IMG/VR virus record: IMGVR_UViG_3300029309_000355
Span: 1-23,596 of that record
Direction: 5' to 3' (one strand)
Length of the DNA: 23,596 bases
Source: a virus
Part shown: positions 69 through 22,729 of the stretch, in pieces
How positions within the stretch are numbered: position 1 is the stretch's first letter
Layout: each line of letters opens with the position of its first letter
Notes under the pieces: generated by a model
The model's input: the letters and a program-made list of their open reading frames with translations, nothing else
Told to the model about the DNA's origin: nothing
Databases searched by the model: none
Translations under genes and position numbers: made by a program

Positions 69-2567
69 TCATTCAATTGCCGCTGAATAACGTGGCGCTC
101 TTGTCGGCGCTGTATCACCCGGACCCCACCAGTATTTTTGACCGAAATCCCTACGATACTTTGTTTCTGCCCTACGAAACTTAGACCGCGCTTTTGGATC
201 TGTCATAAGCTGTAGTTGATCCCATACTTTGCGTTCTAATGCTAACCTTGCATACCACAAAGACGAACCGGGTAAATATCTTTGCGTAAATTTAACTAAC
301 TCACCAGCTGCGTTTGTATCGTCACCAGTAGCAGCTTGATATAAGTTACCAACACTTAATTTTAAAATATCATCGCCAAAACCAGCAACAGGTCCAGCTA
401 TAGTTTCTGCTAAACCACCGCCAAATCTATTTGTTCCAGAGTTTAGAAAATCACCAAAGATACCTAGACCACCGCCTTGCATAAATGCGGCAAACCAGAA
501 CTTTGCAGTTTCTTCACTATCACCAAACATATTACGCGGATCACGACCTTTAGATATTTCTTTAAGTTGCAATGCTAACGCACCCATCATTGTAGTAGAA
601 ATAAGTAAGTTCGCGTAGTAACCACCTTTGCTTGATGTTTTATCTAACGTCATGCCGCGCATCAAATGTGTATTTACAACAGTAACGCCAAAGTTTTTAT
701 ACATTGCAAAAGACCGCGATAACTCACCTGTAACTGTTCCGGGCTGACTGTCACCTGTGAGAAATACACGACCTCTCAGTGAATTAGATGGCACAGCAAA
801 GTTTGTTTCGGTATTAATCATTTCTAAATACCGAGTTGCTACACTTTCTCTTAAACTAGGGTCTAAATCTGCACGATCCATAAGATCAGTAGGTCTTATA
901 AATTTTGCACCTTTTTCATCATATGGGTTTGTTGCGCGTATAACATCCCAATCCGATTGATTTATGTTGTAACGTTGCAACGTAGATTTAAAATTTGGAT
1001 CTAAATCGTTAAAACCTTTGGCAGCGTTACGCCCAACAAACTGTTGAAACTCCATACCAAAAGCCCAACGCCCGGCAGAAGTCATTGGCGATAGAAAAGA
1101 AGCGCGCATTACAAAATCAGATATACGCCTAGTAACTTCTGGACCCGACATATCGCCAACAAAACGCATTTGCCCGGCAGCTAAACTTGTCCAACCTTCT
1201 GCAATTAAACCAGAACCGATTGCTAACTCACCTTTTTCTTTTGCACCTAGAGGACTAAGGTATTCTAAATACTGTTGTAACGTGCGCGTTTGCGATAAAC
1301 CTGTAAACTGACGCGCTAACCGTTGAAAGTTTAGATCTGTAATTGCAGAGATTGACGCAGCACCTAACTGCGCCGATTGCAGTATTTGACGCAACCCAGC
1401 AAAAACAGGTGCGTATGTTCCATCAATGGGTGCATTATTCCTACCAGTAACGGCAGCATACAAATGTTCTATTTTTTTATTTGTTTTCGCAACTGCGTTT
1501 TCAGCTTTTACGTTAACTGGTCCAGTAAGGGCTTCTGTTTTTACTTTTTTATTTAAAGTTTGCTGTAGAAAATTTACCGTTGCTGTAGGATTAGGCCCAA
1601 GTATTTCCATTAGCGCAATGTCACGCGACATATTTTTTACATGAGAAATCATAGTGTCAAAAACATTTGGATCACCAAATTGTTCTTGGTACTTCATCCA
1701 ACTGTCTGCATTTTTAAAAATTAAAAACCTATGATCTTGCCGCGTATTACCTAAAGATTTACCGCGCCCACCAGCCCCCGGATTTAACTTATTAAATCCT
1801 TCTGACGTAATACTATCGTAAACATCGTTTAACGCTAAGTCTAATTGAAAATCATTAAAAGGTATACCTGTAGTTTGGTCTATCATTTGTGTACGATTTA
1901 ATAACGGTTTTATAAAGGTTTTCCACAATTCTCGACCAGCTTTTGCAATAGTAATTCTATTGTGATTTTGTGAAATTCCGTAATTTTTCTTAAATGCAAT
2001 ATTGCCGCCAGCCCTGTTAAATCTTTTGCCTAACATTTTTGTTGTGCCACCCCAAGCTTCGGCAAGTTCTTTTGCGCTTACATCACCTGTATTTTCACCA
2101 AACGCCTCTCTAACAATATTTTTAAGTTTTGCTTTGCTTCGTACATTACCTATTAGATTGCGACGAAACGTACCAAGAATTTTATTCATGTTTGCAAACG
2201 CAAAACCAGCAATAGCTTCTTCTCTTTGCACTACACTAGAAAACTTTGACATTCCATCTTGCTCAAATAAAGCAAGCGCAGCTGCATTTGGATCTTGTTG
2301 ACCTAACCTATTACGATAGCTATCTAGGTTTCTTGTAATTTCTTGCCATGTACGCATTTGCGTAATCTTTTGGCGTTTGCTATGTAACTTTTTATTTTTA
2401 ATTGCATTGAAAGCATCTTTGCCAGCCTCTGCTTCGGCAGCTGTATCGCTCATTTTCCCTTTATGAAACTCTAGCTGTTGCTCATAAACCTCGCGCACTT
2501 CCTCCGCTTGGTTTCTTGTAAGCTGATTGCCGTTTTCTAAATCATCAATACATTTTTTAAAACTCAT
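69..2567 (-). CDS. Large virion/ejection protein, polyvalent-protein C-terminal type (832 aa)
   Basis: This is a very long protein with no recognised enzyme motif. The N-terminal 80 residues are charged and probably coiled. The middle is helix-rich. Around residues 605-660 there is a stretch around 'RSFAMYKNFGVTV', followed by a hydrophobic, glycine-rich segment (roughly 640-730). The end carries the pattern 'LWYARLALERKVWDQL' and then 'GQKYWWGPGD'. From memory, this ending recurs at the C-termini of giant podoviral ejection or DarB-like polyvalent proteins, so I infer a DNA-ejection role. I place the start at the ATG at 2567 because it makes an ATGA overlap with the stop of the upstream gene and has AAGG 6-7 bases away. 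The GTG at 2576 is a poorer alternative. It is the last complete gene of the late operon. A tail-associated structural protein is the main alternative. Confidence 0.72.
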   Translation of the reverse strand: MSFKKCIDDLENGNQLTRNQAEEVREVYEQQLEFHKGKMSDTAAEAEAGKDAFNAIKNKKLHSKRQKITQMRTWQEITRNLDSYRNRLGQQDPNAAALALFEQDGMSKFSSVVQREEAIAGFAFANMNKILGTFRRNLIGNVRSKAKLKNIVREAFGENTGDVSAKELAEAWGGTTKMLGKRFNRAGGNIAFKKNYGISQNHNRITIAKAGRELWKTFIKPLLNRTQMIDQTTGIPFNDFQLDLALNDVYDSITSEGFNKLNPGAGGRGKSLGNTRQDHRFLIFKNADSWMKYQEQFGDPNVFDTMISHVKNMSRDIALMEILGPNPTATVNFLQQTLNKKVKTEALTGPVNVKAENAVAKTNKKIEHLYAAVTGRNNAPIDGTYAPVFAGLRQILQSAQLGAASISAITDLNFQRLARQFTGLSQTRTLQQYLEYLSPLGAKEKGELAIGSGLIAEGWTSLAAGQMRFVGDMSGPEVTRRISDFVMRASFLSPMTSAGRWAFGMEFQQFVGRNAAKGFNDLDPNFKSTLQRYNINQSDWDVIRATNPYDEKGAKFIRPTDLMDRADLDPSLRESVATRYLEMINTETNFAVPSNSLRGRVFLTGDSQPGTVTGELSRSFAMYKNFGVTVVNTHLMRGMTLDKTSSKGGYYANLLISTTMMGALALQLKEISKGRDPRNMFGDSEETAKFWFAAFMQGGGLGIFGDFLNSGTNRFGGGLAETIAGPVAGFGDDILKLSVGNLYQAATGDDTNAAGELVKFTQRYLPGSSLWYARLALERKVWDQLQLMTDPKARSKFRRAETKYRRDFGQKYWWGPGDTAPTRAPRYSAAIE

Positions 2568-5500
2568 AACGGACACCTTGATATTGCATCGACCATTGCA
2601 TCATCTTGATCTATTTCATCAAGCAACTGCCTAGCTGTTACTTTTCGCAAAACAACTTCGCCAGTAACATCATCTACTTCGCCTAAGACTTCTAACGGAA
2701 ATTCCTCGTCTAAAAAACTTTCGCTAATAGTGGGTGTGTCTAGCTCCTCAAAGCTTTCAGAGATCTCTCCAACAGATACTTTCCTACCTGTCCGTCTGAC
2801 TTCTGGACCGCTTTCAACTCCACCTCTTCTAAGTCTAATACTCGTGTCTTTGAGGAGTTCCCCGGTTTCTGTAAGGACTTCTTTGTATCCGTCTTGAGGT
2901 CCGTTGTTGTCGATTCTGTAATAGCCATCTGCTAAACCTTTCTTTTTAATTTCATCAAAAGTTTTGCTTGGATTTTCACCAACCTTAACTACATATTGTG
3001 GATTAATAAATCTATCCTTTGATACAAAACGTTGCAACATACGCTGCATTGCATTGTCAAAAGATACCGCCATATCAAATACTTCTACACTATAACCTTT
3101 TTGTTTTATCATAGAAATAGCACGTTCTATACTTTCTACGTTACCGCCGACTTTTGGCAACACTAAGTTATCACCTTCCTCTAGCAACGTTTTAAGCAAA
3201 ATGTCCGACATTAAAGAACTTTCTTCATGTATTGCATTTGCACCTATACCACCTTCGTATTCTGGCAAAAGCTTCTTAGCTTCATCTGCATCAACAATAG
3301 AAGCACCCATCTTGCGCGCTATAGGATTAGCAAGCGTACTTTTCCCGGCAGCTGGTGGCCCAAGTATAATTACTGCTTTCTTTTCTTTTCTAATAGCATT
3401 AGCTGGCAACTCTATCTTATCATCTATCCAGCCAAGACTACGCGCTGTTTTAACCATATCGCGCATAGCATCGTCAAAAGTACCGTTGTTACTACCGTCA
3501 ACAATGTACTGTCTTTCACTCACCCAATTTGCAATACCTTCAACATCGTTTTCATCTTTAGGGTAGCCCGGCATTTTATTTGTTTCGGGCCTACTTTCCA
3601 TATCTTCTACGGCTCTTACAATGTAAGGATGTCGTATTAAAGTTTCATTATTAGGATTGTTTTTAAGTTGCCGCTGAAAATCTAGTTTATATTCATCAAG
3701 TATTTCATTAACATCTAAATCTTGACGCAACCCGGCATCTAATATTCTAGCTTGTTCCTCCATGCCCTCGCTAAACAAACTATCAAATTTATCTAGCTCG
3801 ATTTCCTCTGCATCTGTTCGTATCTGAGGGATTTCTTCTGGAGCATCGAAAGCGCGTCCAGCATCGCTAATTTCTGCGCGGTCGAACTCGCCATCTGAAA
3901 TTGCTCGTCTGACATCTTCGACAAAGCTTGTTGTAGCGCGGTTGTAGTTTCCTGTTTCTTTTGCTTGCCTTGCTGCGGTTGTAAGGGCTTCTGAGAGGCT
4001 ACCTTTCCTGTTCGCTTGGCTTTGGAGGAGCGAGATCGCTTTGCCATCGTTTGTTGCCCTTCTTTTGTTTGCTTCGTTTGCTAGTTTGTTACCTTCATCT
4101 TCCAGCCTATCTGCATTTTTAATTAAGTTCTGGAAAGAGTTTTTATCTTTGCGTAATTGTTTTTGCGCTCGGTCTAACACTTTTGCGCGCTCGGCAAACA
4201 AGCTTTGCGTTAACACTTCCTCACCGAATAAGTTTTCTTGCGTTTCGCTTACAAGTTCTGTTTCGCGTACCTGACGCACTATTGCTTCTGCTTGAAACTC
4301 ATTAGACGGTTCTGTTTTTGATAATACATCTAACGCTGCTTTTTGCATTGTGGCATCATCTGCCATCAACCGACCAACAATAGCTGCGTAGTTTGGTGCA
4401 ACTATTTCATTTTTAACCATACCCCACGCATCATCTGATAACTGTGACAAGTCTCTAGCCTGTCGGACAAATGCAGATTTTGGCGGTAACTCAACAATTC
4501 TATCTGGGTTTATGCGTAGTATCTTTGCTGCATCTATAACAGTGCCAGTACCTTCGGCTATGTTTTTTAGTGCAGCAATAACGGTTGCCTCTTCTGGCGT
4601 GATGCCATCTTTTTCACGCAATCTAAAACCAACCATTTGTATATCTTGGCTAGGATCTTGATCCATAATACGTTTGGCTAAACCTAGTCGCTGGTGTCCA
4701 TCTGCTATAAACAAACGACCATCAGCGTATTCATACACTGTAATCATTCCAGCTTTTATTGGGTCAAACTCTGTTACACCCTCTAACCTATCGGTAACAC
4801 CGTATATGTCACCACCTTCTTTAAACTGAAATGTTTTAGCATCTACGTTTATATCACGCGGATTAAATTCATCTACAACGCCGCCAAGATTAGTAGCTTG
4901 ATTAATGTTATCTGGTATAACAACTTGCGCTTCCGTATTGTCTGACAGCCTTGGCATTTCGCCATCGTTAATTGCTACGGTTGCCTCTGTAAGCCGGGCT
5001 TGATGTTCAGCTTGACCTATAGAATTATGCGATTTGTTTTTTTTATTTTCTAAACGTTGATTTTCAAGACCTATAGCTTCTTGCTCTTTCTGTATTTCTT
5101 TAAGTCTTTCATTTATCTTTATTTGTCTTGGATTTATACGCGCAACTATTTCTTCATTACTTAAACCTTGATCTGACAATTCCATTGTCTCATTCGTAAG
5201 TTCTGTGCTTTCAGCATTTAGACGTTTTTTTTCTGCATCCAATTCGTCAAAACGTTTGTTAATTCTTACAAGCTGCTCGTTTATATTATTAATATTTACA
5301 TCACGATCTTTTGCAGAAACTTCAAATGGACTGCTTTCTACTGTTGAAGATGCAACCTCTTCTAAAATTTCAGCTGTTTCTTGTAGATCGGTTTTCCTTG
5401 TGCCTGTTAGTAGACGCGCACCTTTTTTTGCTTGCTCGAATGTCAAGCCGATAGTTTTGCCACCGATCTTTATACCAATAGGAAAAGCACCACCAATAAT

Positions 5501-6211
5501 TGCTGCGCTACCTACATTAGTAACAAAATCTTTCCAAGAATATTCTAAGCCTAAACTTTCGTACCACTCGGCAACCCCCGGTTGTTGTATAGCTTCTACA
5601 CCAGCATTTGATATTGCTTCGCCAAACACGATAGCGCTAAAAGTATTTCTCAGACGTAACGCCGGAACAAGCATACTTAGTTGGTTTATTGGATCTTCAG
5701 CGCCAGCTGCTAAACCACCTAAAAACCTAGCCGTTGTATTACCTATCCCCGGGGATCTGTCAGTAATTTCTGCTAACTCACGCTGCTCGGCATGGTATTC
5801 ATCTTTTGCTTGTTGCCGCCAAGTGTTATCTCTTTCTTTGTCTAATACTGTATTCACTACATTTTCTGGCAACACATCTTGATTATCACGCACATAGCTT
5901 TCTACTTTTTCTACATAGTGATCGTAATGAAACTGCTTGTTTATAAGTGGATAGCCCCTACCTATTTCAAAAATATTTGGCCTAAGATAAGAACCGGGAT
6001 TGTTAAATGAAACGCCAGTAATATCTTTTATTTCGTCAACTACAGGCTCCCACGCTTCTTTGATATAGCGCTCGGCAGACGTTCCGCTTTGCATTAGACC
6101 AGCATCAAAAGCTTGCGATAAGTTTTCTACAAACGAACCTAACGGTTTATCTGCCCTTGGCGCAGACGCAAACGCTAACTTGTTTACTTGATTAGGTAGA
6201 TAGCTAGCCAT
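2564..6211 (-). CDS. Polyvalent ejection protein with ParB-superfamily domain and zeta-toxin-like kinase (1215 aa)
   Basis: Visible layout: a charged N-terminus (1-150); a hydrophobic Gly/Ala-rich region (about 155-260) that could insert in a membrane; a strongly charged coiled-coil region (about 305-395); a ParB-superfamily-like domain (about 425-565) with the box 'FIADGHQRLGLAKRI' at 501-515 and a conserved-looking 'ALKNIAEGTGTVIDAAK' at 547-563; charged helices with Arg/Lys/Glu (660-870); then a P-loop kinase (about 943-1110). The Walker A motif is GPPAAGKST at 951-959, followed by DAD at 974-976 and HEES at 995-998, which resembles zeta-toxin-like kinases. Position in the late operon corresponds to T7 gp16, but I see no lytic transglycosylase motif. 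Polyvalent proteins with these domains (for example the P1 DarB/ddrB group) are known to be packaged and injected. The anti-host or anti-restriction role here is inference. It overlaps its neighbours by 3-4 bases. Confidence 0.85.
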   Translation of the reverse strand: MASYLPNQVNKLAFASAPRADKPLGSFVENLSQAFDAGLMQSGTSAERYIKEAWEPVVDEIKDITGVSFNNPGSYLRPNIFEIGRGYPLINKQFHYDHYVEKVESYVRDNQDVLPENVVNTVLDKERDNTWRQQAKDEYHAEQRELAEITDRSPGIGNTTARFLGGLAAGAEDPINQLSMLVPALRLRNTFSAIVFGEAISNAGVEAIQQPGVAEWYESLGLEYSWKDFVTNVGSAAIIGGAFPIGIKIGGKTIGLTFEQAKKGARLLTGTRKTDLQETAEILEEVASSTVESSPFEVSAKDRDVNINNINEQLVRINKRFDELDAEKKRLNAESTELTNETMELSDQGLSNEEIVARINPRQIKINERLKEIQKEQEAIGLENQRLENKKNKSHNSIGQAEHQARLTEATVAINDGEMPRLSDNTEAQVVIPDNINQATNLGGVVDEFNPRDINVDAKTFQFKEGGDIYGVTDRLEGVTEFDPIKAGMITVYEYADGRLFIADGHQRLGLAKRIMDQDPSQDIQMVGFRLREKDGITPEEATVIAALKNIAEGTGTVIDAAKILRINPDRIVELPPKSAFVRQARDLSQLSDDAWGMVKNEIVAPNYAAIVGRLMADDATMQKAALDVLSKTEPSNEFQAEAIVRQVRETELVSETQENLFGEEVLTQSLFAERAKVLDRAQKQLRKDKNSFQNLIKNADRLEDEGNKLANEANKRRATNDGKAISLLQSQANRKGSLSEALTTAARQAKETGNYNRATTSFVEDVRRAISDGEFDRAEISDAGRAFDAPEEIPQIRTDAEEIELDKFDSLFSEGMEEQARILDAGLRQDLDVNEILDEYKLDFQRQLKNNPNNETLIRHPYIVRAVEDMESRPETNKMPGYPKDENDVEGIANWVSERQYIVDGSNNGTFDDAMRDMVKTARSLGWIDDKIELPANAIRKEKKAVIILGPPAAGKSTLANPIARKMGASIVDADEAKKLLPEYEGGIGANAIHEESSLMSDILLKTLLEEGDNLVLPKVGGNVESIERAISMIKQKGYSVEVFDMAVSFDNAMQRMLQRFVSKDRFINPQYVVKVGENPSKTFDEIKKKGLADGYYRIDNNGPQDGYKEVLTETGELLKDTSIRLRRGGVESGPEVRRTGRKVSVGEISESFEELDTPTISESFLDEEFPLEVLGEVDDVTGEVVLRKVTARQLLDEIDQDDAMVDAISRCPL

Positions 6212-8781
6212 TAATTACTTTCATCTTTTAATTGTTTATCTACTAATTTTTGAATTTCCGATAACATCGCATCATTAACAGAAACATTGTTTAATTCAGC
6301 CCAAGATTTTATTATTTCTCTACCATCATTATCAGTTAAAACTTCAATCATAGAAAATTCATCAACAAGATCATCTAATATACTTTGTGCTGATTGTTTT
6401 GTTTTTTCTTTAGGTTCTGATGTATCTTCGTTTTTTTGTTCAGCAACAAACTTTGCTGCTTCTTGCGCTGCACCTGTTGCAGTAAAACCAGCTACGCCAG
6501 TTTCTTCAACTACTTTTGGCGGTTGTATCCTAGAAGCTGTAACAAGTTCTTCCATAGTAAAAGCTAAATCCTCACCATTACTATCAGTCATTATTCCAAA
6601 GCCAGCTGATCCATACTCGCCACGCTGCACACCGTAAACAATCTTTCCGTTTTCACGACCTCTTGCGTAAAAAGAATATTCTTCTCCACTTTGAATTGCC
6701 TCAAATAATTCTTTGTCAACGAGTGTAGTGCTAGCAATACTGCTAAAGTTTTCTCTAGTAATATTTTCTAATGCTGTTTTTATTTCTTCAGCTGTTCTAT
6801 TTGGCGGTAGAATTGTTGGTTTTTCTTTAATTTCTTGCACACCACCGCCACCAGTTTGCGGATTAAAACCTGACGCAATCTTAACAGCTTCTGACCACAA
6901 ACCTTCGTCATAAGTCTTATCAACTTTACGCGAAATAACTTCTGCGTAATACGCTAATGCTACATCTTTTATATCTTTTTTAAGTTTAGCATTTAGTTCG
7001 CCGGGCAAAAATTCATACGCCGCACCAATAATACCAAACATTGTGCTTTCTGCTTCACGCATATCAGCGCCCTCTATCGGCACACCGTTTGCGTTTATTT
7101 CTTCTACACCTTTAAATATTACTTCTGCTTGTGGCATAAGCCCATCTTGCATAAGACCAGCAACGTGCATTGTAACAGGCGCTTGACCAGACAGCTGTTC
7201 TAACACCGACCCGGCGTGTCTACCAAACATTTGTTGAACTGTAGTGATAGCTTGCATTTTTTCTACAGCTGTTCCTGTATTAAAACTTGGCGCATATTTA
7301 GCAACATCTTCTGGCGTAAGAAACTTTATAGCTCCGTCAAGTTCATAATGACCATGTATTGCAATCGCATCATTTATTCTTTTAGAGATCCCGGTGTTAT
7401 CAATACCACCTGTAAAGTTTGAACTTTGTATTGCCTGTGGAGATAAGTCTATTGGAGTTATATCTACCGACCCTACTTTAGAAGCGTATCCTACAGGATC
7501 AGATTTAAGTTGTTTTTCCATGTCAGCTTTAAAACCGCGCAAAAACTCTAAACCTAAACTTGCTTGACCTTCTGTAACACCCGGACCTTCTAAGCTAATT
7601 ATTAAATCGTTAATACCTTTTGTGTTACTGACACCTTTAACAGCTTGCGAAAGATTGTTTAAAAAACGTAAATCAGCAAGACCTTCAGTAGTAACAGTTT
7701 GGTCTGCTTCATCTCCGAAAGGCATAGTCAGTTGCGCTTGCGCTTCTAACGTTTCTATATAACCATCAGGTAAAGCCAATCCTTTTTGCAACATTGAAAC
7801 GCCATCAGTAATTCCTTTTTTTGTTTCTTTAAGAATTTGAAGATTAACTCTTTCAAGTTTTTGTTGTTCAGCTGACGGAGCATCAAAAAACGCTGCACCA
7901 GCGCCAAGACTTTGCAATAGTTTTGCCGCATCATTCATCGGCAACATTTCCAGTAAACCGATCTGCATACGCCCGGCTCCACTGTTGGCTAACACAGTTT
8001 CCCTACCAGCTGCCCTTTCGGGTTCTGGTCTGCTTTGCAGTTGTTGTAGCTCCCTAAGAGTAAGTCGTAACTCTTCTAAATCTTGTACAGGCGTACCGCT
8101 ACTATTCAATGCTGCACGTATATTGCCAAGAATACCGTTGTACAAAGCATTGTACTCTTGTTGTTTTAATGCACCGGGATTGCCTAATCCTAATTGTGCA
8201 AGCCTGACAGAGTTAATGCCAAAGTTATTTGCGTGAAGCTTTGCTTCGTTTAGTTCTGTAGCACTTGCAATGTTTTGCGAAAACTGCGTTGCTGCATCGG
8301 CTCTTGTTTTCTGCGTAGCTGCATCAAGCTTTGTATCTATTGCACCGCGTAAGCTATACCGATAGGTAAGCTCCATTTGATTGAAACGATCAGTTAATAC
8401 TTGTTGACTACGCCGATCAGTAACACCGTCTAGCAAACTTTCTCTTGCTGTTTTAGTAGCTAACGCCCACTGACCTTCTTCTTCGTTGCCACCTTCGTTA
8501 AAAATTGAACCAAGTTCACCCGGATCAACTCTAGACAATCTACGCGCATCTTCGCGTAAGGCTGTTTCACCAGCTAGCAACTTTTGGTTTATCTGCGCTT
8601 CCCTAGCGGCCTTGTATCGCGTAGCAGCAAACTCACCAATCTCTTTAGTAGCAGCTGTAAACACACTAGCTTTAGCTTCTGCCTGTCTAATAAAAGGCGC
8701 TGCACTTGCTCTTGCTCTAAAACTACGACCCGGCGCTTCGCCTGTAGGTGTGCTACCAGCACGATAGATAGGTATACGCAT
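6211..8781 (-). CDS. Internal virion / ejection protein, T7 gp15-like position (856 aa)
   Basis: This is a long, mainly helical protein. The N-terminus is basic and rich in Arg and Ala, then come long charged helices (about 30-340) of the type seen in podoviral ejection proteins. A less charged middle follows, then an acidic Lys/Glu tail that looks disordered or coiled (about 770-856). No catalytic motif or membrane segment is evident. The gene follows the 173-residue gp14-like gene after a 21-base gap and its stop overlaps the next start as TAATG. Position and size match T7 gp15 (747 aa) and P22 gp20-like ejection proteins. Assignment rests on position and composition, not on a recognised motif. 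The start ATG has AAAAGG upstream. Confidence 0.75.
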   Translation of the reverse strand: MRIPIYRAGSTPTGEAPGRSFRARASAAPFIRQAEAKASVFTAATKEIGEFAATRYKAAREAQINQKLLAGETALREDARRLSRVDPGELGSIFNEGGNEEEGQWALATKTARESLLDGVTDRRSQQVLTDRFNQMELTYRYSLRGAIDTKLDAATQKTRADAATQFSQNIASATELNEAKLHANNFGINSVRLAQLGLGNPGALKQQEYNALYNGILGNIRAALNSSGTPVQDLEELRLTLRELQQLQSRPEPERAAGRETVLANSGAGRMQIGLLEMLPMNDAAKLLQSLGAGAAFFDAPSAEQQKLERVNLQILKETKKGITDGVSMLQKGLALPDGYIETLEAQAQLTMPFGDEADQTVTTEGLADLRFLNNLSQAVKGVSNTKGINDLIISLEGPGVTEGQASLGLEFLRGFKADMEKQLKSDPVGYASKVGSVDITPIDLSPQAIQSSNFTGGIDNTGISKRINDAIAIHGHYELDGAIKFLTPEDVAKYAPSFNTGTAVEKMQAITTVQQMFGRHAGSVLEQLSGQAPVTMHVAGLMQDGLMPQAEVIFKGVEEINANGVPIEGADMREAESTMFGIIGAAYEFLPGELNAKLKKDIKDVALAYYAEVISRKVDKTYDEGLWSEAVKIASGFNPQTGGGGVQEIKEKPTILPPNRTAEEIKTALENITRENFSSIASTTLVDKELFEAIQSGEEYSFYARGRENGKIVYGVQRGEYGSAGFGIMTDSNGEDLAFTMEELVTASRIQPPKVVEETGVAGFTATGAAQEAAKFVAEQKNEDTSEPKEKTKQSAQSILDDLVDEFSMIEVLTDNDGREIIKSWAELNNVSVNDAMLSEIQKLVDKQLKDESN

Positions 8782-8802
8782 TAATATTTACCTTTTTTAA
8801 AA

Positions 8803-9324
8803 TTACGCAAAAGCTCTAGTATCATAACCAATACGTGCAGCCGAACCAAAACCAGCTATTAAACTTGCCGTACCTGACGATCTAAGCGCTGCCGCTGATG
8901 CACCAGCTTCCATACGCGATAACTGCGCTGTTAACTTGGTATCTTCTATAGCATCGTTGATTTGCATATTAGTTACATAGTTATTGAACTTATCTATAGC
9001 AATTTCAAAATCACTTTCTCGACCACCCTCGCGCAAAACTTGCATAGGTGTGCCGACTGCAATATCAACACCAGCGTAAGCAAACCCAGCTACAGCCTGA
9101 CCTTGCGTTTTACGAAACGCCATCCGCTTACGCTTGTTAGAAATAAGCACATTGTTGTTAATAATAGTACGTTGATTTTCTAATAAGTTTACATCACGCT
9201 CGATAATCTGTGCATTAAACTCACCAACTCTTGCAGCTGCCGCTGCCGCTTTGTTAGCAGCTTTCTTTTCTGCTATACCGCCAGCAACTTGCGTACCCAT
9301 CATTATTAATGGCAGTGCTTCCAT
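8803..9324 (-). CDS. Internal virion / ejection protein, T7 gp14-like (173 aa)
   Basis: This is a small Ala-rich protein. The N-terminus (1-32) is a hydrophobic patch followed by an Ala/Lys helix ('AEKKAANKAAAAAARVGEF'). A central helix with many Asn and Lys follows (45-75), then 'AGFAYAGVDIAVGTPMQVL' (about 78-96), a pattern that recurs in gp14-like proteins where a loop precedes the second long helix. The C-terminus has a Gly/Ala-rich hydrophobic stretch. T7 gp14 (196 aa) is the outer-membrane-inserting part of the ejection channel, and size, order (after gp13-like, before gp15-like) and composition all fit. The start overlaps the end of the GNAT-like gene by 19 bases in another frame, which suggests coupled translation. 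Confidence 0.78.
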   Translation of the reverse strand: MEALPLIMMGTQVAGGIAEKKAANKAAAAAARVGEFNAQIIERDVNLLENQRTIINNNVLISNKRKRMAFRKTQGQAVAGFAYAGVDIAVGTPMQVLREGGRESDFEIAIDKFNNYVTNMQINDAIEDTKLTAQLSRMEAGASAAALRSSGTASLIAGFGSAARIGYDTRAFA

Positions 9325-9752
9325 TTCGCGTACCTTTCGTAATCTAAACCATCTGGTCCATACTTGTGCATTAGACCTTCGCTTGTAAAACCTAAAAACT
9401 TTGCAAGCTTATGTGCGTTTGTAAAATCTGATCTAACAACAGCTTGTACCCTTGTCAGCTTCAGTCTAGTTATTGCGGCATCTAACTCACGTTTAACTAA
9501 ACGTATTGTTTGTATCCGCTTACCTTGCATTTCTCGCGTAGGCAAAAACCAAGCTTCTGCTACACCTTCCCATACAGGCGCTAGACCTGTAACAGCGTAA
9601 ACCTTGCCATTGTCTATAAGTGCCAAACCTCTACCCGGCTGCAAATAAACAGGCATTGCAGAAAGAACTAAACCTAACTGCGAATTGTTTTGCAACGGAA
9701 CCCGATCCGCTACATCTAAAACGTGAACTTTACTAAGTGGTCTTGCTATCAT
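9306..9752 (-). CDS. T7 gp13-like virion-assembly protein with GNAT acetyltransferase fold (148 aa)
   Basis: The second half has the signature of the GNAT fold as found in phage gp13/DUF2833 proteins. 'AEAWFLP' (65-71) forms the core strand, a long basic helix follows (79-98), then 'VQAVV' (102-106), then 'NAHKLAKFLGF' (112-122) with 'EGLMHKYGPDGLDYERYA' (125-142). The usual GNAT acetyl-CoA loop (Q/R-x-x-G-x-G/A) is represented at best by the Gln-Gly-Lys-Arg at 76-79, so enzymatic activity is uncertain. In T7, gp13 is needed for assembly of the internal core. Its position between the nozzle and the gp14-like gene matches that role. The start overlaps the stop of the nozzle gene (ATGA). Confidence 0.78.
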   Translation of the reverse strand: MIARPLSKVHVLDVADRVPLQNNSQLGLVLSAMPVYLQPGRGLALIDNGKVYAVTGLAPVWEGVAEAWFLPTREMQGKRIQTIRLVKRELDAAITRLKLTRVQAVVRSDFTNAHKLAKFLGFTSEGLMHKYGPDGLDYERYAKWKHCH

Positions 9753-11752
9753 TTATCAAAAGTATTCATCCTCGGATACAGTGCTAATACTGTCAAAGGT
9801 AGTGGCTGTGTCTGTTGTAAGTATATTCTATCATCATCATCAAAGCCACCCGGAAACTCAACATCTTTATCGCCGGAGAAAAGAGGAACCGCCGTATCCA
9901 TATCCATTGAACTATCGCGGAAAAAGATACGATCCGTTTCGGAGCTATCGTTACCTACTTCTACGCCCACTGTTTCAAATAATCGTACTGTAATACCGTG
10001 TATTCTTTTCGGCTTGCCCTGACTTGTACCGTCAGAAGATCCGCTTTCAATGCGTAGCGTTTGCATATTAGATGTGTACCCATACCCAATAGCAGCGCTA
10101 GTTGCAGAGAAATTAAGTGCTATAGACGCGCTTGATACTGTTTTGTTCGCATGACTTGCGCCGTTAGCAAGCACAGAAACCGTTTCACCTTCTAAATGAT
10201 ACAACGTACTAAAACTATTAACCGCACTGCCCGAATACGATAGACCGCTATCTACAAAAAATGCAGACGTAGTATTGCTACCGAAATCAAAATCTTTCAT
10301 GCGCTCTACATATCGCCGGGTAACACTATTGATAGTGCGTTTTACAATCATGTATAGCTCGTCATTACCTGTGTCCGTAGGTAACGTTGCAATGCTTTCG
10401 ACCACTGCCGAACTGCCGCTAAACGTGCCACCTATCGTATGTTTATGCCACGCAACAACTTGCTCTTCACGCCGATACGTTAAACCTACTAGTGTGCCAT
10501 CTGCACGAATAGCCCACACAATATTTTCTGGCTCTTGTTGGTACGCAAAACTTTCTAGGCCACCTTCCGTAATATGTTCTGCTAACACTGTAAGATCCGG
10601 CGCTTGATACCCGGCTGTATTTACTTCACCAATATATTTAAACTCTCTTACTTTTCTATTGCCGCGTTGCAGAAACAACGTTACATCTGCGACCTGTACA
10701 GGCTCTGTATTAGCCGATCCGTAGTTAGAATACTTACGAATTTGCGTTGTAGTCGGCGTTATAGGACCGTCATTTGTAGTTGTAAGCACGTATTCACCGC
10801 CGGAAGTACCAATAGTAAGCACTCGCGTAGCTGATAAATACCTAATATTGTTTACTTGATTTGATGCAATCGTGTAAATAAGAGCGTCATCTGCGTTTGT
10901 TCCTGTAGTAAAGTTAAGATAATCTGCGCTTTTACTAAACCATAACGTTTGTGGGTTGTTGTTTGTTGCTGCAAAAACAAGTCTTTGTTCAAAAAACGTA
11001 ACAACACTTGGGTAATTATCAGTACCTGACAGTGATGGATTAGGCGATCCTGTTATTGTTGCTGTGGCAAATGTCCAAGCGTTGTGATTTGTACGCGATA
11101 AAGTACGAATTGCATAGCTTGGATGTACAAAATACATAATATCTGCACTTTGCGCGAACCGTAAATTAAATATGTCAGCCGCTGCGTATGGCGTTGCTAC
11201 TTCAAATATTTCATCTACTGCCCCAGCTGACGCATATGTTGTAAAGTTTGTTGTGTTAATGTTGTTGCCAAACAAATCTTGCAACGTAAATGTATTTGTT
11301 GTGACGTTAGCCACCTTATAGTTACGACCATTTAATTCTGTCATGCCGACAACATTATCTAAAAATATTTCATCACCATTGCTATAGCCATGAGAAGATA
11401 TTGTTACTACGCCGGGGTTTGCTTTTGTTACAGCTGTAATATTTTGTGCCGATCCTTTTAAAACTTGAGAGCCGTTGCGATACACACGCATAACTTGATC
11501 CCCAAACACAAGTATGTATGTATCTGTGGTTTTAAACTGAAATGGTATAAGCCTACTTTTTACACTGCTATCTTTTACAGTGCCAAGATACTGAGTACCC
11601 GGTCTACGTGTAACGCCGCCGTGTGGTTGCACCACCATGTTAGTTAAATCTGATAAGCCAGCCTTGTATTTCTCTAGCGTAATACGCCCTTCTAAGCGTG
11701 GCGATATTTCACCAGCTGTAAATGTGCTTAGTGAAGGTGCAGATCTTGCCAT
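9749..11752 (-). CDS. Tail nozzle protein (T7 gp12-like tubular protein B) with FCCH-like insert (667 aa)
   Basis: The start 'SLSTFTAGEISPRLEGR' (7-23), followed by 'NMVVQPHGGVTRRPGTQYLG' (38-57), is the typical opening of podoviral tail tubular B/nozzle proteins, which form the distal tail tube and are beta-propeller-like. Residues about 104-160 ('ITAV', 'VVTISSHGYSNGDEIFL', 'MTELNGRNYKV', 'TTNTFTLQD') look like the FCCH-like domain known from ubiquitin-activating enzymes and repeatedly found inserted in phage tail proteins. Later parts are beta-rich, with 'YPSVVTFFEQRLVFAAT' (about 246-262), another hallmark of this family. It lies directly after the gp11-like adaptor and the two genes meet as TAATG. 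It is shorter than T7 gp12 (794 aa). Confidence 0.9.
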   Translation of the reverse strand: MARSAPSLSTFTAGEISPRLEGRITLEKYKAGLSDLTNMVVQPHGGVTRRPGTQYLGTVKDSSVKSRLIPFQFKTTDTYILVFGDQVMRVYRNGSQVLKGSAQNITAVTKANPGVVTISSHGYSNGDEIFLDNVVGMTELNGRNYKVANVTTNTFTLQDLFGNNINTTNFTTYASAGAVDEIFEVATPYAAADIFNLRFAQSADIMYFVHPSYAIRTLSRTNHNAWTFATATITGSPNPSLSGTDNYPSVVTFFEQRLVFAATNNNPQTLWFSKSADYLNFTTGTNADDALIYTIASNQVNNIRYLSATRVLTIGTSGGEYVLTTTNDGPITPTTTQIRKYSNYGSANTEPVQVADVTLFLQRGNRKVREFKYIGEVNTAGYQAPDLTVLAEHITEGGLESFAYQQEPENIVWAIRADGTLVGLTYRREEQVVAWHKHTIGGTFSGSSAVVESIATLPTDTGNDELYMIVKRTINSVTRRYVERMKDFDFGSNTTSAFFVDSGLSYSGSAVNSFSTLYHLEGETVSVLANGASHANKTVSSASIALNFSATSAAIGYGYTSNMQTLRIESGSSDGTSQGKPKRIHGITVRLFETVGVEVGNDSSETDRIFFRDSSMDMDTAVPLFSGDKDVEFPGGFDDDDRIYLQQTQPLPLTVLALYPRMNTFDK

Positions 11753-12357
11753 TAGAAACGCGCCTCGACAAAATCATTAGCTTCAATACGCTCTGGCGCA
11801 CCTTCAGTTGCGTCCTGAAACGTACTTTCTTTAAGTTTTCTATCGTAATCAGCTGCCGATAGCTGCCGTACAGTAGTAGATCCTGTAATTGCATACGATA
11901 TTTCATACGCTAATCTAGCTGCTAACGTTTCAATTAGCCCGGCATCATACTGTTGTGGGTCTGTAATCCGCGCAACATACTTGATTTTTGCAGTACCTTC
12001 GTCCGTTAATAGCTTGCGACCCTCAATAATAAACGCCGGAGTATCGCTATTACTTCGCATATTATCAAACGGAAACGTTAATGTGCCGTTGCTAAACTCT
12101 AAAACGCGCAAACAAAATGGGTCTGTAGGTAAAGCATACTGTTTACCGTAGCCGTATGTAGGCGCTGTACTTTCTTGTGCTAGCTCTGCCCTACGAATTA
12201 AACAATTCCAAGGATGCGATCTAAACACACTATCTCTTACCGCTTCGTATCGCTGGTTAACAATGCGCGCTGGTTTGCTGTTTTCATCTAGCGCAGTAAT
12301 ATTAGATGCACCTAAACTGTTTAGCGCATAGTTAGCAATATCAACGGTACTTGTCAT
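11752..12357 (-). CDS. Tail tube adaptor (T7 gp11-like tubular protein A) (201 aa)
   Basis: The N-terminus 'IANYALNSLGASNITALDE' (7-25), followed by 'ARIVNQRYEAVRDSVFRSHPWN' (residues about 30-51, paraphrased across two motifs: a helix ending in Arg-Asp and the His-Pro-Trp-Asn turn), is diagnostic of tail tubular protein A and P22 gp4-like adaptors. These form the ring between portal and nozzle. 'YGKQYALPTDPFCLRVLEF' (71-89) is the second conserved block. The start has a GGAG site 8-9 bases upstream and follows the strong terminator, so it is the first gene of the tail sub-operon. Its stop meets the start of the nozzle gene as TAATG. Confidence 0.92.
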   Translation of the reverse strand: MTSTVDIANYALNSLGASNITALDENSKPARIVNQRYEAVRDSVFRSHPWNCLIRRAELAQESTAPTYGYGKQYALPTDPFCLRVLEFSNGTLTFPFDNMRSNSDTPAFIIEGRKLLTDEGTAKIKYVARITDPQQYDAGLIETLAARLAYEISYAITGSTTVRQLSAADYDRKLKESTFQDATEGAPERIEANDFVEARF

Positions 12358-12371
12358 TCTCTATCTCCAAT

Positions 12372-12404
12372 AAAAAAGAGGGGGCGCAAACGCGCCCCAC
12401 TCTA
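12372..12404 (-). terminator. Strong intrinsic terminator between head and tail genes
   Basis: On the minus strand the arm AGAGTGGGGCGC pairs with GCGCCCCCTCT across a 4-base loop (GTTT), with one bulged base. That gives about 11 base pairs, mostly G-C, followed by TTTTTTA. It begins one base after the stop of the 153-residue gene and lies just before the ribosome binding site of the adaptor gene. It should stop or reduce transcription from the capsid genes into the tail genes, giving excess head protein over tail protein. Confidence 0.88.
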
Positions 12405-12866
12405 TTAGTCTAGAACGTACTTAATGGTAAGTTCAACAGTACCAGTGCCAGCTGCACCGCCCATTGTTACCGTTACAGGAACACCGTCCTCGTTAGCGTC
12501 TAACTCTGTGCCGGAGCCTAGAGCTAGTGTAGCAAGGATGTCTACCTTTTGCGCTGATGTAGAAGCCGCAGCTGCTTTATACGCTGCCGCTGACGCGCTT
12601 ACTGCGCTACCAGCTGCGTTAGTATGTGCAGCAAAACCTACAGACAAGGTTGTAGATGAACCCATTGCATCATGTGCAAGTGATCCTTCTAACAATCTTG
12701 CCCCATCAGGCATGATAAACATTTCAATAACGTCACCAGACGCTAAAGAAGATGCTTCAAAAGTACCATGAGCAACTCTAATTCTGCCACTCATTTCGTT
12801 TGCCTTATTCATCACAGCTGGTGTAGCGCGTGAATTAGTGCGTTGGGTTGAATAAACAGTAGCCAT
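12405..12866 (-). CDS. Capsid-linked protein, possible head decoration protein (153 aa)
   Basis: This is a small, Ala/Gly/Ser/Thr-rich, beta-prone protein of low charge: 'VAHGTFEASSLASGDVIEMF', 'GARLLEGSLAHDAMGSSTTLSVGF' (as two halves), an Ala-rich loop at about 85-105, and a C-terminal 'GTVELTIKYVLD'. I do not recognise a named family. Comparable proteins sit right after the capsid gene in many podoviruses and are often annotated as virion or decoration proteins, which I infer from position. It has an excellent AAGGAG site, lies 12 bases after the capsid gene, and is followed directly by the terminator, so it is probably made at high level together with the capsid protein. A role as a minor head or tail-tip protein is possible. 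Confidence 0.75.
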   Translation of the reverse strand: MATVYSTQRTNSRATPAVMNKANEMSGRIRVAHGTFEASSLASGDVIEMFIMPDGARLLEGSLAHDAMGSSTTLSVGFAAHTNAAGSAVSASAAAYKAAAASTSAQKVDILATLALGSGTELDANEDGVPVTVTMGGAAGTGTVELTIKYVLD

Positions 12867-12878
12867 TAGTCAGTCTCC

Positions 12879-13739
12879 TTATTCGTTACACGCAATTTCT
12901 ACTACTTTTTCTTCTTCCATGCGAGTTGCCCCGATGGATTGACAGTAATAGACTTGCGTTGAGTATGACTTATCGGCACGTTCATCAATCCGAGCAGACG
13001 GTTCTTTACCGATTGCCAGCTTGATACCGTCACTGGCAAAAGCAATAACCTGACGGTCACTGTTGCTGTCAGTGTTCAAACGATTAGATACGATAAAATT
13101 AAAGCCAACAAATGAATTAAGATCACCTGTTGCCAAAGCTTTTACAGTATTAAAATCACTTGACGTTACGGTTGTATTGTTAAGCAGATCAGAGATTTGC
13201 TTTGGCGATACAATAATATGCCGCGTGATGGATGGGTCAACACTGTTACTATCTAATACTTCTTTAGCACTTAGAAGTTTCGCAATAGTTAACCCGGCGC
13301 TGCCATGTGCAATTTTCTGACCAGCTGGAAGCGTTGTAGAAGTGCTACCATCTTTACCAGTAGTTGCAGTGCCAAGAGCCGCAGTAATAATTACATCATC
13401 CATTGCTCTGCCCATAGCTGCCGCCGCTGCTTGAGAATAAGTAGATGTTGGATCAGCAAGCAAGCGCACTTTGTCTTGATCGTCAATTAAATCTGCATAT
13501 TCATAATCAGCCATAGTTACCATACGTCTGCTATGCGGTGTTTCCACCAATGGCGTGTCTGCATGGCGTGAGGTTCGTAGAACAGCTGCTGCTGCACCTA
13601 CTTGATCGAAAAAAGCTTTTTCACCGTTCACACTCTCACTGTCAACTGCATTACGCAGCAACGAACCCTTTTGCTGTGATAGCATCTGGATGTTCGCGGA
13701 GAACTGTTGAACAAAAGCTGTAGTTATTTGAGTAGACAT
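12879..13739 (-). CDS. Major capsid protein (286 aa)
   Basis: The sequence has the features of the HK97-fold 'phage capsid protein' group found in P22/BPP-1-like and marine podoviruses. There is a Gln-rich N-terminal helix ('FVQQFSANIQMLSQQKGSLL', 9-28), then 'HSRRMVTMADYEYADLIDDQD' (about 68-88), an Ala-rich helix with 'AAAAAMGRAMDDVIITAALG' (about 103-122), the 'RHIIVSPKQISDLLN' strand-helix pair (about 173-187), and 'FVGFNFIVSNRL' (about 210-221). A length near 290 residues fits this group and is shorter than T7 gp10 (345). The gene has an ideal AAGGAG site, lies after the scaffold gene with a 125-base leader, and precedes a probable decoration gene and terminator. The codon choice is also slightly less AT-rich than that of the ejection genes. 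Confidence 0.92.
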   Translation of the reverse strand: MSTQITTAFVQQFSANIQMLSQQKGSLLRNAVDSESVNGEKAFFDQVGAAAAVLRTSRHADTPLVETPHSRRMVTMADYEYADLIDDQDKVRLLADPTSTYSQAAAAAMGRAMDDVIITAALGTATTGKDGSTSTTLPAGQKIAHGSAGLTIAKLLSAKEVLDSNSVDPSITRHIIVSPKQISDLLNNTTVTSSDFNTVKALATGDLNSFVGFNFIVSNRLNTDSNSDRQVIAFASDGIKLAIGKEPSARIDERADKSYSTQVYYCQSIGATRMEEEKVVEIACNE

Positions 13740-21936: not shown

Positions 21937-21967
21937 GCCGCATTGAGCTTCTCAGTGCGGCTTTTTT
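21937..21967 (+). terminator. Intrinsic terminator of the plus-strand operon
   Basis: GCCGCA and TGCGGC, with the inner TGAG/CTCA, form a stem of about 10 pairs with one mismatch around a 3-base loop, followed by TTTTTT. It lies 88 bases after the last plus-strand gene. The bases of the hairpin also encode the last residues of the opposing DUF6362-like gene, whose stop lies inside the stem (21952-21954), so the two operons converge here. No T-run follows on the minus strand, so it is one-directional. Confidence 0.88.
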
Positions 21968-22362
21968 ATTATCCAAGTCAAGCGTACCAGCGCAGCGATA
22001 TACTCATTCTTGACGCTTCTCCGTGAGCGTCCGAGCATTTTACCCAGCTTAGTCCATTGTGGACCGCGTTCCCTTCCTACGGCGCTATGTGCAGCTGCCC
22101 AAATTATCTTTCTATCGTCCTTCCCCATGCGTAGACCCAAATCTAACGCAGTATACAAACGATCAATTTGTGTAGCTGTAGGCTGTATGCGTACCTGTTT
22201 AACATCAGACCAACCATAACTCGACCATGATTGTACATAATCAGGCCAGCTTGATAAGTTTTGTCTGCGATACACACCGGGCATATAACGTTCTGTTTGT
22301 GCCGCTTCCATAAATAAATCATTAAGATCTTCAGCTGTCATTTTCGATACATCTTGCGACAT
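21952..22362 (-). CDS. DUF6362-like helix-turn-helix protein (136 aa)
   Basis: The middle part ('SWPDYVQSWSSYGWSDVKQV', about 38-57, then 'PTATQIDRLYTALDLGLRM') and the C-terminal part ('DDRKIIWAAAHSAVGRERGP', about 81-100, then 'QWTKLGKMLGRSRRSVKNEY') resemble DUF6362 of phage and alphaproteobacterial proteins: a conserved Trp-Pro, Tyr-Gly-Trp, Ile-Asp-Arg, Ile-x-Trp-Ala-Arg-like set, followed by a helix-turn-helix. It may act as a regulator, which is inference. I choose the ATG at 22362, which has GAGG 6 bases upstream; the upstream TTG has no site. Its start overlaps the end of the Asn-rich gene by 32 bases, and its stop lies inside the convergent terminator. Confidence 0.76.
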   Translation of the reverse strand: MSQDVSKMTAEDLNDLFMEAAQTERYMPGVYRRQNLSSWPDYVQSWSSYGWSDVKQVRIQPTATQIDRLYTALDLGLRMGKDDRKIIWAAAHSAVGRERGPQWTKLGKMLGRSRRSVKNEYIAALVRLTWIIKKPH

Positions 22363-22729
22363 AGTAATCCTCAAAGCTCTGGCAAAACTTTGCTTGCTCC
22401 ATTGGTGACAATGTAGCTACATGATTTACTGCTTCAATAAAATTCTGCGTTCCTAACCGGGTTCGCAGTAACTTCATAACTTTTTCTAAACGAAATGCTA
22501 ACGGATCTTGTCGCGCTTTCTCGCCAGCTTTCTTGTATGCCGGGTTCATCTTGACAAGTGTTCGTTTCAGTACGTCTTGCTTATAGTTATTAACTATATT
22601 GTTATTATAGTTATTTATAGTTACTGCTATATTGTTATTAACTATATCGTTATTAACTATATTGTTATTAACTTTATAGTTATTATCTCGCCTCGGGAGG
22701 CTCGCGTTAGCGTACAGCGGTTTTCGCAT
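22331..22729 (-). CDS. Asn-rich, repeat-bearing protein of unknown function (132 aa)
   Basis: After a basic start (1-14), residues 16-49 are almost all Asn, Ile, Val and Tyr in blocks such as 'VNNNIVNNDIVNNNI'. From residue 50 onward it is an ordinary charged helical protein ('LKRTLVKMNPAYKKAGEKAR', 54-73, then 'LAFRLEKVMKLLRTRLGTQN', then 'LSPMEQAKFCQSFEDYYVAR'). No family is recognised. The Asn-rich part is coded by AT-rich tandem repeats, so the DNA may matter more than the peptide. The ATG overlaps the preceding gene by 23 bases and its ribosome site is weak, so a start further inside (Met61) cannot be ruled out. Confidence 0.62.
   Translation of the reverse strand: MRKPLYANASLPRRDNNYKVNNNIVNNDIVNNNIAVTINNYNNNIVNNYKQDVLKRTLVKMNPAYKKAGEKARQDPLAFRLEKVMKLLRTRLGTQNFIEAVNHVATLSPMEQAKFCQSFEDYYVARCIENDS
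22580..22684. repeat. AT-rich iteron-like tandem repeats
   Basis: A 15-base unit (plus strand TATATTGTTATTAAC) occurs three times in perfect register at 22628-22642, 22643-22657 (one base changed, C for T) and 22658-22672. Related partial copies lie on both sides (13 bases of the unit at 22595-22607). Each unit contains the small dyad GTTA-T-TAAC, present four times in the block (22586, 22634, 22649 and 22664). The block is about 105 bases and contains few G or C, except at the dyads. It could be a replication-origin iteron array or a regulator-binding array, or only a low-complexity coding expansion. Confidence 0.8.

What the first reader, a model, noticed from the sequence alone, without database searches (positions are those of the whole stretch)
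2564..6211. Virion-operon protein joining a ParB-superfamily domain and a zeta-toxin-like kinase
Seen: 'FIADGHQRLGLAKRI' (residues 501-515) and a full P-loop GPPAAGKST (951-959) with DAD (974-976) and HEES (995-998) in one 1215-residue protein encoded where T7 places gp16. Known: polyvalent proteins, such as P1 DarB/ddrB, carry ParB-like domains and are packaged to protect or reprogram DNA; zeta-like kinases phosphorylate small molecules or cell-wall precursors. Inference: the protein enters the host with the DNA, and the kinase could be a first-minute effector or anti-defence module. No lytic transglycosylase motif is visible, so the usual peptidoglycan function may be replaced.
Basis: partly seen in the sequence, partly recalled or inferred. 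Interest (0 to 1): 0.75.

Follow-up and report, generated by a model that had tools for sequence, protein, structure and literature searches.

The report
Phage injection protein with swappable effectors
This phage protein is probably packed in the virus particle and injected with the DNA; it joins a ParB-type DNA-binding-like domain to a kinase of the zeta-toxin class, and in close relatives the kinase is replaced by a different toxin-type enzyme or is missing, so it looks like a carrier with an exchangeable payload.

Summary
The gene lies on the minus strand (2564-6211, 1215 aa). The kinase matches Pfam Zeta_toxin (8.5e-19). The ParB call has no Pfam support, but an AlphaFold2 model of residues 430-800 matches Noc/ParB structures (best E 6.6e-5, prob 1.0).

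The main result goes beyond the finding. In a large family of marine phages (415-559 IMG/VR relatives per scan), the kinase sits in an exchangeable cassette between the ParB core and a conserved C-terminal tail. Phages with cores at least 99% identical carry a zeta kinase, RelA/SpoT-like pyrophosphokinases (model top hit: T6SS toxin Tas1), or no cassette. Flanking DNA is up to 97% identical with nothing alignable between. Alphaproteobacterial relatives carry PBECR RNases there.

Best explanation: a virion-packaged polyvalent protein with a swappable effector, working like MuF polymorphic toxins but without a MuF domain or immunity gene. Packaging and injection are inferred. The zeta substrate is unknown: four UNAG/metal-contact positions are not conserved. 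No SLT domain was found in 15 related contigs, but nothing shows the kinase replaces it. Zeta, RelA/SpoT, ART and PBECR domains in polyvalent proteins are already described (PMC5512222). New variant of a known kind.

The parts
2564..6211 (-). Gene of the 1215-aa polyvalent-type protein (gp16 position)
   Evidence: homologues
5312..6211 (-). Conserved N-terminal block, residues 1-300 (function unknown)
5027..5320 (-). Coiled-coil-like insert, residues about 298-395; present here and in L034, absent in the 93%-identical L023
3812..4924 (-). Conserved core, residues 430-800: ParB/Noc-like domain followed by helices; invariant ADGHQRxG
2714..3790 (-). Exchangeable effector cassette, residues about 808-1166 (boundaries approximate)
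2918..3391 (-). Zeta-toxin-class P-loop kinase domain, residues 941-1098
2567..2713 (-). Conserved C-terminal tail, residues about 1167-1215, kept whatever the cassette
69..2576 (-). 835-aa virion structural protein (phrog_684), overlaps the end of the gene by 13 nt, so there is no room for an immunity gene
6211..8781 (-). gp15-position protein, 856 aa, no recognisable domain
8803..9324 (-). gp14-like internal virion protein (weak matches)

Best explanation
This is a virion-associated polyvalent protein with an interchangeable enzyme payload. A conserved N-terminal block, a ParB/Noc-like core and a conserved C-terminal tail form the carrier. I infer that it is packaged with the other internal proteins and leaves the virion with the phage DNA, the ParB-like core perhaps holding DNA. 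The segment between core and tail is a cassette that phages exchange by recombination. In this phage it is an ATP-dependent zeta-class kinase with the Walker lysine (K957), the catalytic aspartate (D976) and the arginines R1061 and probably R1067 retained. I infer that it phosphorylates a small host molecule, nucleotide or sugar-nucleotide, in the first minutes of infection, to disable the host or a defence. Shown: gene, kinase family, ParB-like fold prediction, cassette exchange, purifying selection. Inferred: packaging, injection, substrate, purpose.
For: Late virion operon position with overlaps on both sides. Zeta_toxin E 8.5e-19. ParB/Noc fold. The core is shared with a clear polyvalent protein of Ruegeria phage 45A6. 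In 80 loci (78 with a typed cassette) the cassette state changes at least 27 times on the core tree; 200 label shuffles gave 34-40. 5 of 30 pairs with cores at least 99% identical carry different cassettes. Sharp DNA boundaries: L062 zeta vs L067 RelA-like, 97.4% identity upstream and 95.9% downstream with nothing alignable between; L082/L083, L071/L079 and L029/L034 differ by presence or absence. The alternative cassettes are toxin-class enzymes: RelA/SpoT-like (model top hit Tas1, E 3.8e-7), PBECR3 2e-13 and PBECR1 8.7e-9 in alphaproteobacterial contigs, and a weak ART match. The zeta cassette is under purifying selection (pN/pS 0.11-0.36) with invariant active-site motifs.
Against: No virion proteomics exists for any family member that I could find. 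The ParB support rests on a predicted model (pLDDT 77.6) and modest TM-scores (0.2-0.3 by query length). No Pfam ParB match, and a direct profile comparison with one ddrB-ParB sequence failed. The zeta substrate is unknown. The payload cannot be essential, since some members lack one. The number of cassette types and changes depends on motif-based typing, and some contigs are fragments.
Confidence: 0.72

Rival explanations
1. The protein is mainly a structural ejection protein (gp16 analogue). The cassette segment is a tolerated, freely diverging accessory region whose enzymes act only within the virion or the channel, or during late infection, and not as injected effectors.
For: Position between the gp15-like and phrog_684 genes; the N-terminal block and tail are conserved independently of the cassette; members without a cassette exist.
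Against: Cassettes are intact enzymes of toxin classes with invariant active-site motifs and purifying selection, which is unlike neutral filler. A domain acting only in the virion would hardly alternate between kinase, pyrophosphokinase and RNase.
Confidence: 0.15
2. It is a zeta-type toxin that phosphorylates UDP-N-acetylglucosamine and so weakens the wall to aid DNA entry or lysis, as suggested for zeta domains in polyvalent proteins (PMC5512222).
For: Pfam Zeta_toxin match; positions equivalent to K46, D67 and R158 conserved.
Against: Positions equivalent to E100, E116, T118 and T128 of zeta are D1003, P1019, V1021 and A1031 here (alignment). E116 is essential in zeta and the others contact UNAG or support its binding (PMC6356619, PMC3062530). 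The RelA-like and RNase cassettes that replace it have no link to the wall.
Confidence: 0.12
3. The zeta domain is part of a toxin-antitoxin or lysogeny-stability module of a temperate phage.
For: Zeta toxins are usually TA components; an earlier ocean survey read a phage zeta homologue this way (PMC5332604).
Against: No gene fits between it and the overlapping virion genes; the cassette is fused in frame in a late virion operon and is replaced by other enzymes in near-identical phages.
Confidence: 0.04

Closest known systems
Phage polyvalent proteins (Iyer et al. 2017, PMC5512222), e.g. P1 DdrB
   Same: Multidomain, late-gene context, ParB-superfamily domain, and an effector repertoire (zeta, RelA/SpoT, ART, PBECR) all described there.
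   Different: Here the carrier is constant and one payload slot is exchanged between near-identical phages. [quoted passage not shown] The ParB domain here did not match the ddrB-ParB Pfam model.
MuF polymorphic toxins of temperate phages (PMC5576092; Apk2, PMC12226406)
   Same: Constant phage-derived carrier plus variable toxin domain, including RelA-like pyrophosphokinases.
   Different: No MuF domain, the cassette lies before a conserved tail, no room for an adjacent immunity gene, and a short-tailed-phage internal-protein operon.
Haloviruses HCTV-5 gp114 / HVTV-1 gp115
   Same: HCTV-5 gp114 is annotated 'zeta toxin and ParB nuclease domains' and lies near head genes.
   Different: The zeta domain is N-terminal there (residues 145-317), only the zeta part matches by sequence, and the architecture looks independently assembled.
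Ruegeria phage 45A6 3912-aa protein (ANH49087)
   Same: Shares the ParB-like core at 47% identity.
   Different: Much larger: helicase, methyltransferase, GNAT and LPD38 domains, no zeta match.
T7 gp16
   Same: Position in the virion gene order and similar size.
   Different: No Pfam SLT domain; no sequence relation to gp16 was detected in the family searches.

Membership tests
Zeta_toxin (Pfam PF06414) / zeta-PezT kinases | Match to the family model above the curated cut-off | tested here: met
   68.2 bits vs 22.3, residues 941-1098
Zeta_toxin (Pfam PF06414) / zeta-PezT kinases | Catalytic core: Walker K46, base D67, R158 (and R171) | tested here: met
   K957, D976, R1061 aligned and invariant in 18 representatives; the R171 equivalent R1067 lies outside the pairwise alignment and is inferred from its invariance
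Zeta_toxin (Pfam PF06414) / zeta-PezT kinases | UNAG and metal contacts E100, E116, T118, T128 | tested here: not met
   D1003, P1019, V1021, A1031 (sites from PMC6356619, PMC3062530)
Zeta_toxin (Pfam PF06414) / zeta-PezT kinases | Adjacent antitoxin gene (TA system) | tested here: not met
   Neighbouring genes overlap on both sides
ParB/sulfiredoxin superfamily | Fold with conserved arginine in the active-site loop (GxxR) | tested here: met
   Foldseek top 13 matches are ParB/Noc/Spo0J/Srx, best E 6.6e-5; R508 invariant in 31 relatives
ParB/sulfiredoxin superfamily | ddrB-like ParB subfamily (PF18763) | tested here: not met
   No Pfam hit; hhalign with the L016 ddrB-ParB region failed
Phage polyvalent proteins | Two or more conflict-related domains in one phage protein next to late or virion genes | tested here: met
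   ParB-like core plus zeta kinase in the virion operon
Phage polyvalent proteins | Incorporated in the virion and transferred with DNA | not testable with these tools
   Needs virion mass spectrometry or an injection assay
MuF polymorphic toxins | N-terminal MuF domain | tested here: not met
   No Phage_Mu_F match among Pfam hits up to E 1
MuF polymorphic toxins | Variable toxin domains on a constant carrier | tested here: met
   27 or more cassette changes over 78 typed loci; sharp DNA boundaries
MuF polymorphic toxins | Downstream immunity gene | tested here: not met
   Next virion gene overlaps by 13 nt
T7 gp16 lytic transglycosylase | SLT domain | tested here: not met
   None in the protein; 0 of 15 related contigs, control positive

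The most novel reading that the evidence does not exclude
Marine short-tailed phages carry a polymorphic effector system inside their internal virion proteins: one payload slot between a ParB-like core and a conserved tail, refilled by recombination with kinases, pyrophosphokinases, ADP-ribosyltransferases or RNases, and used without immunity genes as an injected first strike on host metabolism or nucleotide-signalling defences. Cassettes would be selected host by host, like tail-fibre tips.
Probability: 0.5. Interest if true: 0.8.

Novelty: new variant of a known kind. Interest (0 to 1): 0.6.

Why it matters
Internal virion proteins of short-tailed phages are usually seen as a DNA-conduit machine. 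If their largest member also carries an exchangeable toxin-class enzyme, a common group of ocean phages injects different chemistry into otherwise similar hosts. The natural near-isogenic pairs (same phage, different or no payload) would let one test what each payload is for. It also gives another reading of 'zeta toxin' genes in marine phage genomes, which have been taken as signs of lysogeny (PMC5332604); whether that particular gene belongs to this family was not tested.

Tried and rejected
Polyubiquitin matches at residues 516-555 in the PDB search are summed weak repeats and were discarded. hhalign of the core against a single ddrB-ParB sequence gave nothing. The idea that the 835-aa phrog_684 protein is a separated LPD38 part of the giant 45A6 protein was tested and failed. 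PDB sequence searches with the gp15-position and 835-aa proteins gave no match. The PADLOC scan gave only weak P-loop matches. The T7-type RNA polymerase search was silent in its controls as well, so it says nothing. Querying with the Dunaliella virus SI2 core alone found one locus only. L013-type cassettes gave no Pfam match; their identity rests on the structure model and conserved motifs. The Rel-d group was typed by motif resemblance only, and the ART-like part of L089/L091 has no Pfam support. Assembly chimerism was considered and is unlikely, because several cassette states occur in two or more independent contigs from different metagenomes.
Full report
Observation. The window is an IMG/VR virus record of 23,596 bases. 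Pfam finds Zeta_toxin at 941-1098 with E 8.5e-19 and no ParB model. PHROGs links residues 453-769 to phrog_10691, E 1.9e-63.

Context. On the minus strand the genes run: Sf6-type small terminase, large terminase, head-tail connector, scaffold-position protein, Phage_capsid_2 capsid, gp11-like, gp12-like, a GNAT-like protein with internal virion protein matches, gp14-like, a gp15-position protein, this protein, and the 835-aa virion structural protein phrog_684. In a contig whose protein is 100% identical a tail fibre-like gene follows. The portal is nearest to pelagiphages such as HTVC204P, at about 60% identity. At the same position HTVC204P has an LPD38 polyvalent-domain protein of 1253 aa. 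The order is T7-like; descent from T7 gp16 is not shown.

ParB core. Thirty-one relatives align over residues 430-800 with 69% mean column identity and invariant ADGHQRxG. The AlphaFold2 model (pLDDT 77.6) has Noc, ParB, Spo0J and sulfiredoxin as its coherent top PDB matches, best E 6.6e-5 and probability 1.0, over about 216 columns, which takes in the region following the N-terminal ParB domain. So the ParB reading is supported by predicted fold, not by sequence profile. Whether it binds CTP, nicks DNA or only holds DNA is open.

Kinase. Pairwise alignment to zeta toxin 1gvn places K957, D976 and R1061 at K46, D67 and R158. These and GPPAxGKS, HEESS and PKVG are invariant in 18 representatives. 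Positions of E100, E116, T118 and T128, which contact UNAG or metal in zeta (PMC6356619, PMC3062530), are D1003, P1019, V1021 and A1031. pN/pS across family members is 0.11-0.36. It is therefore probably an active kinase of the zeta class, with a substrate that should not be assumed to be UNAG.

Exchangeable cassette. A first comparison showed that relatives with 77% identical cores have either nothing (L008/L034) or an unrelated domain (L013/L035) where the kinase lies. Typed by motif, the first 80 loci comprised zeta 38, RelA-like types 29, ParB-like plus RelA-like 4, ART-like plus RelA-like 2, none 5, truncated 2. On the core tree the state changes at least 27 times over 78 typed rows; 200 label shuffles gave 34-40, so cassettes are inherited for a while but exchanged often. 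Of 30 pairs with cores at least 99% identical, 5 carry different cassettes. DNA comparison shows sharp borders. L062 (zeta) and L067 (RelA-like) are 97.4% identical over 8 kb up to the border and 95.9% identical after it, with nothing alignable between. L095 and L091 behave alike (96-97% before, 92% after). L082/L083, L071/L079 and L029/L034 show presence against absence. The reading frame is kept in each of these pairs, and the C-terminal tail (ending in a motif like DDAMIDRLxxC) is recognisable across the family.

What the other cassettes are. The RelA-like cassette of L035 models at pLDDT 89.7. Its best PDB matches are the type VI toxin Tas1 (E 3.8e-7), small alarmone synthetases and, further down, CapRel. 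In the viral library its best matches are 1000-1130-aa phage proteins labelled DdrB-like, ART-PolyVal-like and RelA/SpoT. Related proteins in bacterial genome contigs, mostly alphaproteobacterial, carry PBECR3 (2e-13) and PBECR1 (8.7e-9) RNase domains; one viral relative has a sub-threshold ART match. The payload repertoire is thus that of toxin and polymorphic-toxin systems.

Mechanism. Shown: gene, domains, cassette exchange, selection, absence of a fitting immunity gene (overlaps on both sides). Inferred from known polyvalent proteins and the operon: late synthesis, packaging, ejection with DNA. Inferred: the kinase acts early on a small host molecule. Because some members lack any cassette, the payload is conditionally useful and not part of the essential conduit. 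This argues against it replacing a peptidoglycan-degrading function, although no SLT domain was found in 15 related contigs.

Prior knowledge. Iyer et al. 2017 (PMC5512222) describe zeta, RelA/SpoT, ART, PBECR and ParB domains in polyvalent proteins and predict virion packaging. Jamet et al. 2017 (PMC5576092) describe MuF polymorphic toxins of temperate phages with RelA-like domains. Halovirus HCTV-5 gp114 is annotated as zeta plus ParB. The P-SCSP1 authors guessed that genes 20 and 21 of P-SCSP1a are internal virion proteins from size and position and could not annotate them (PMC9860041); a large gene of the sister phage P-SCSP1c shares the core. In the papers I could search I found no description of payload exchange within this virion protein family, but subscription journals were not searchable. 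I therefore place it as a new variant of a known kind.

Noticed in passing
window 5027-5320: A second insert site: a coiled-coil-like block (residues about 298-395) present here and in L034 but absent in L023, whose flanks are about 93% identical.
   Followed up: partly
window 6211-8781: The gp15-position protein varies in length and C-terminal sequence among close relatives (856-946 aa), so the cassette gene is not the only variable internal protein.
   Followed up: no
window 6211-13073 vs L035: L035 is 90.7% identical over 6.1 kb from the capsid region into the gp15-position gene, then drops to 70-76% in the ejection-protein genes: a recombination boundary.
   Followed up: no
window 22582-22685: Tandem repeat of 15/30-bp units inside ORF 22331-22729, encoding an Asn/Ile/Val-rich repeat.
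   Followed up: no
window 9306-9752: GNAT-like protein with phrog_4177 and phrog_308 (internal virion protein) matches, between the gp12-like and gp14-like genes; also annotated as acetyltransferase in HTVC204P.
   Followed up: no
L017 (HQ332136): 'Dunaliella viridis virus SI2', listed with a green-alga host, is a podovirus-type phage record sharing this core and phrog_684, so the host label looks doubtful.
   Followed up: no
L070, L087, L069, L098 C-terminal segments: Some cassettes carry an additional short ParB-like motif (DGNSTYxIA) before the RelA-like domain.
   Followed up: no
window 21952-22374: DUF6362 protein (Pfam 1.4e-13) upstream of the late genes.
   Followed up: no
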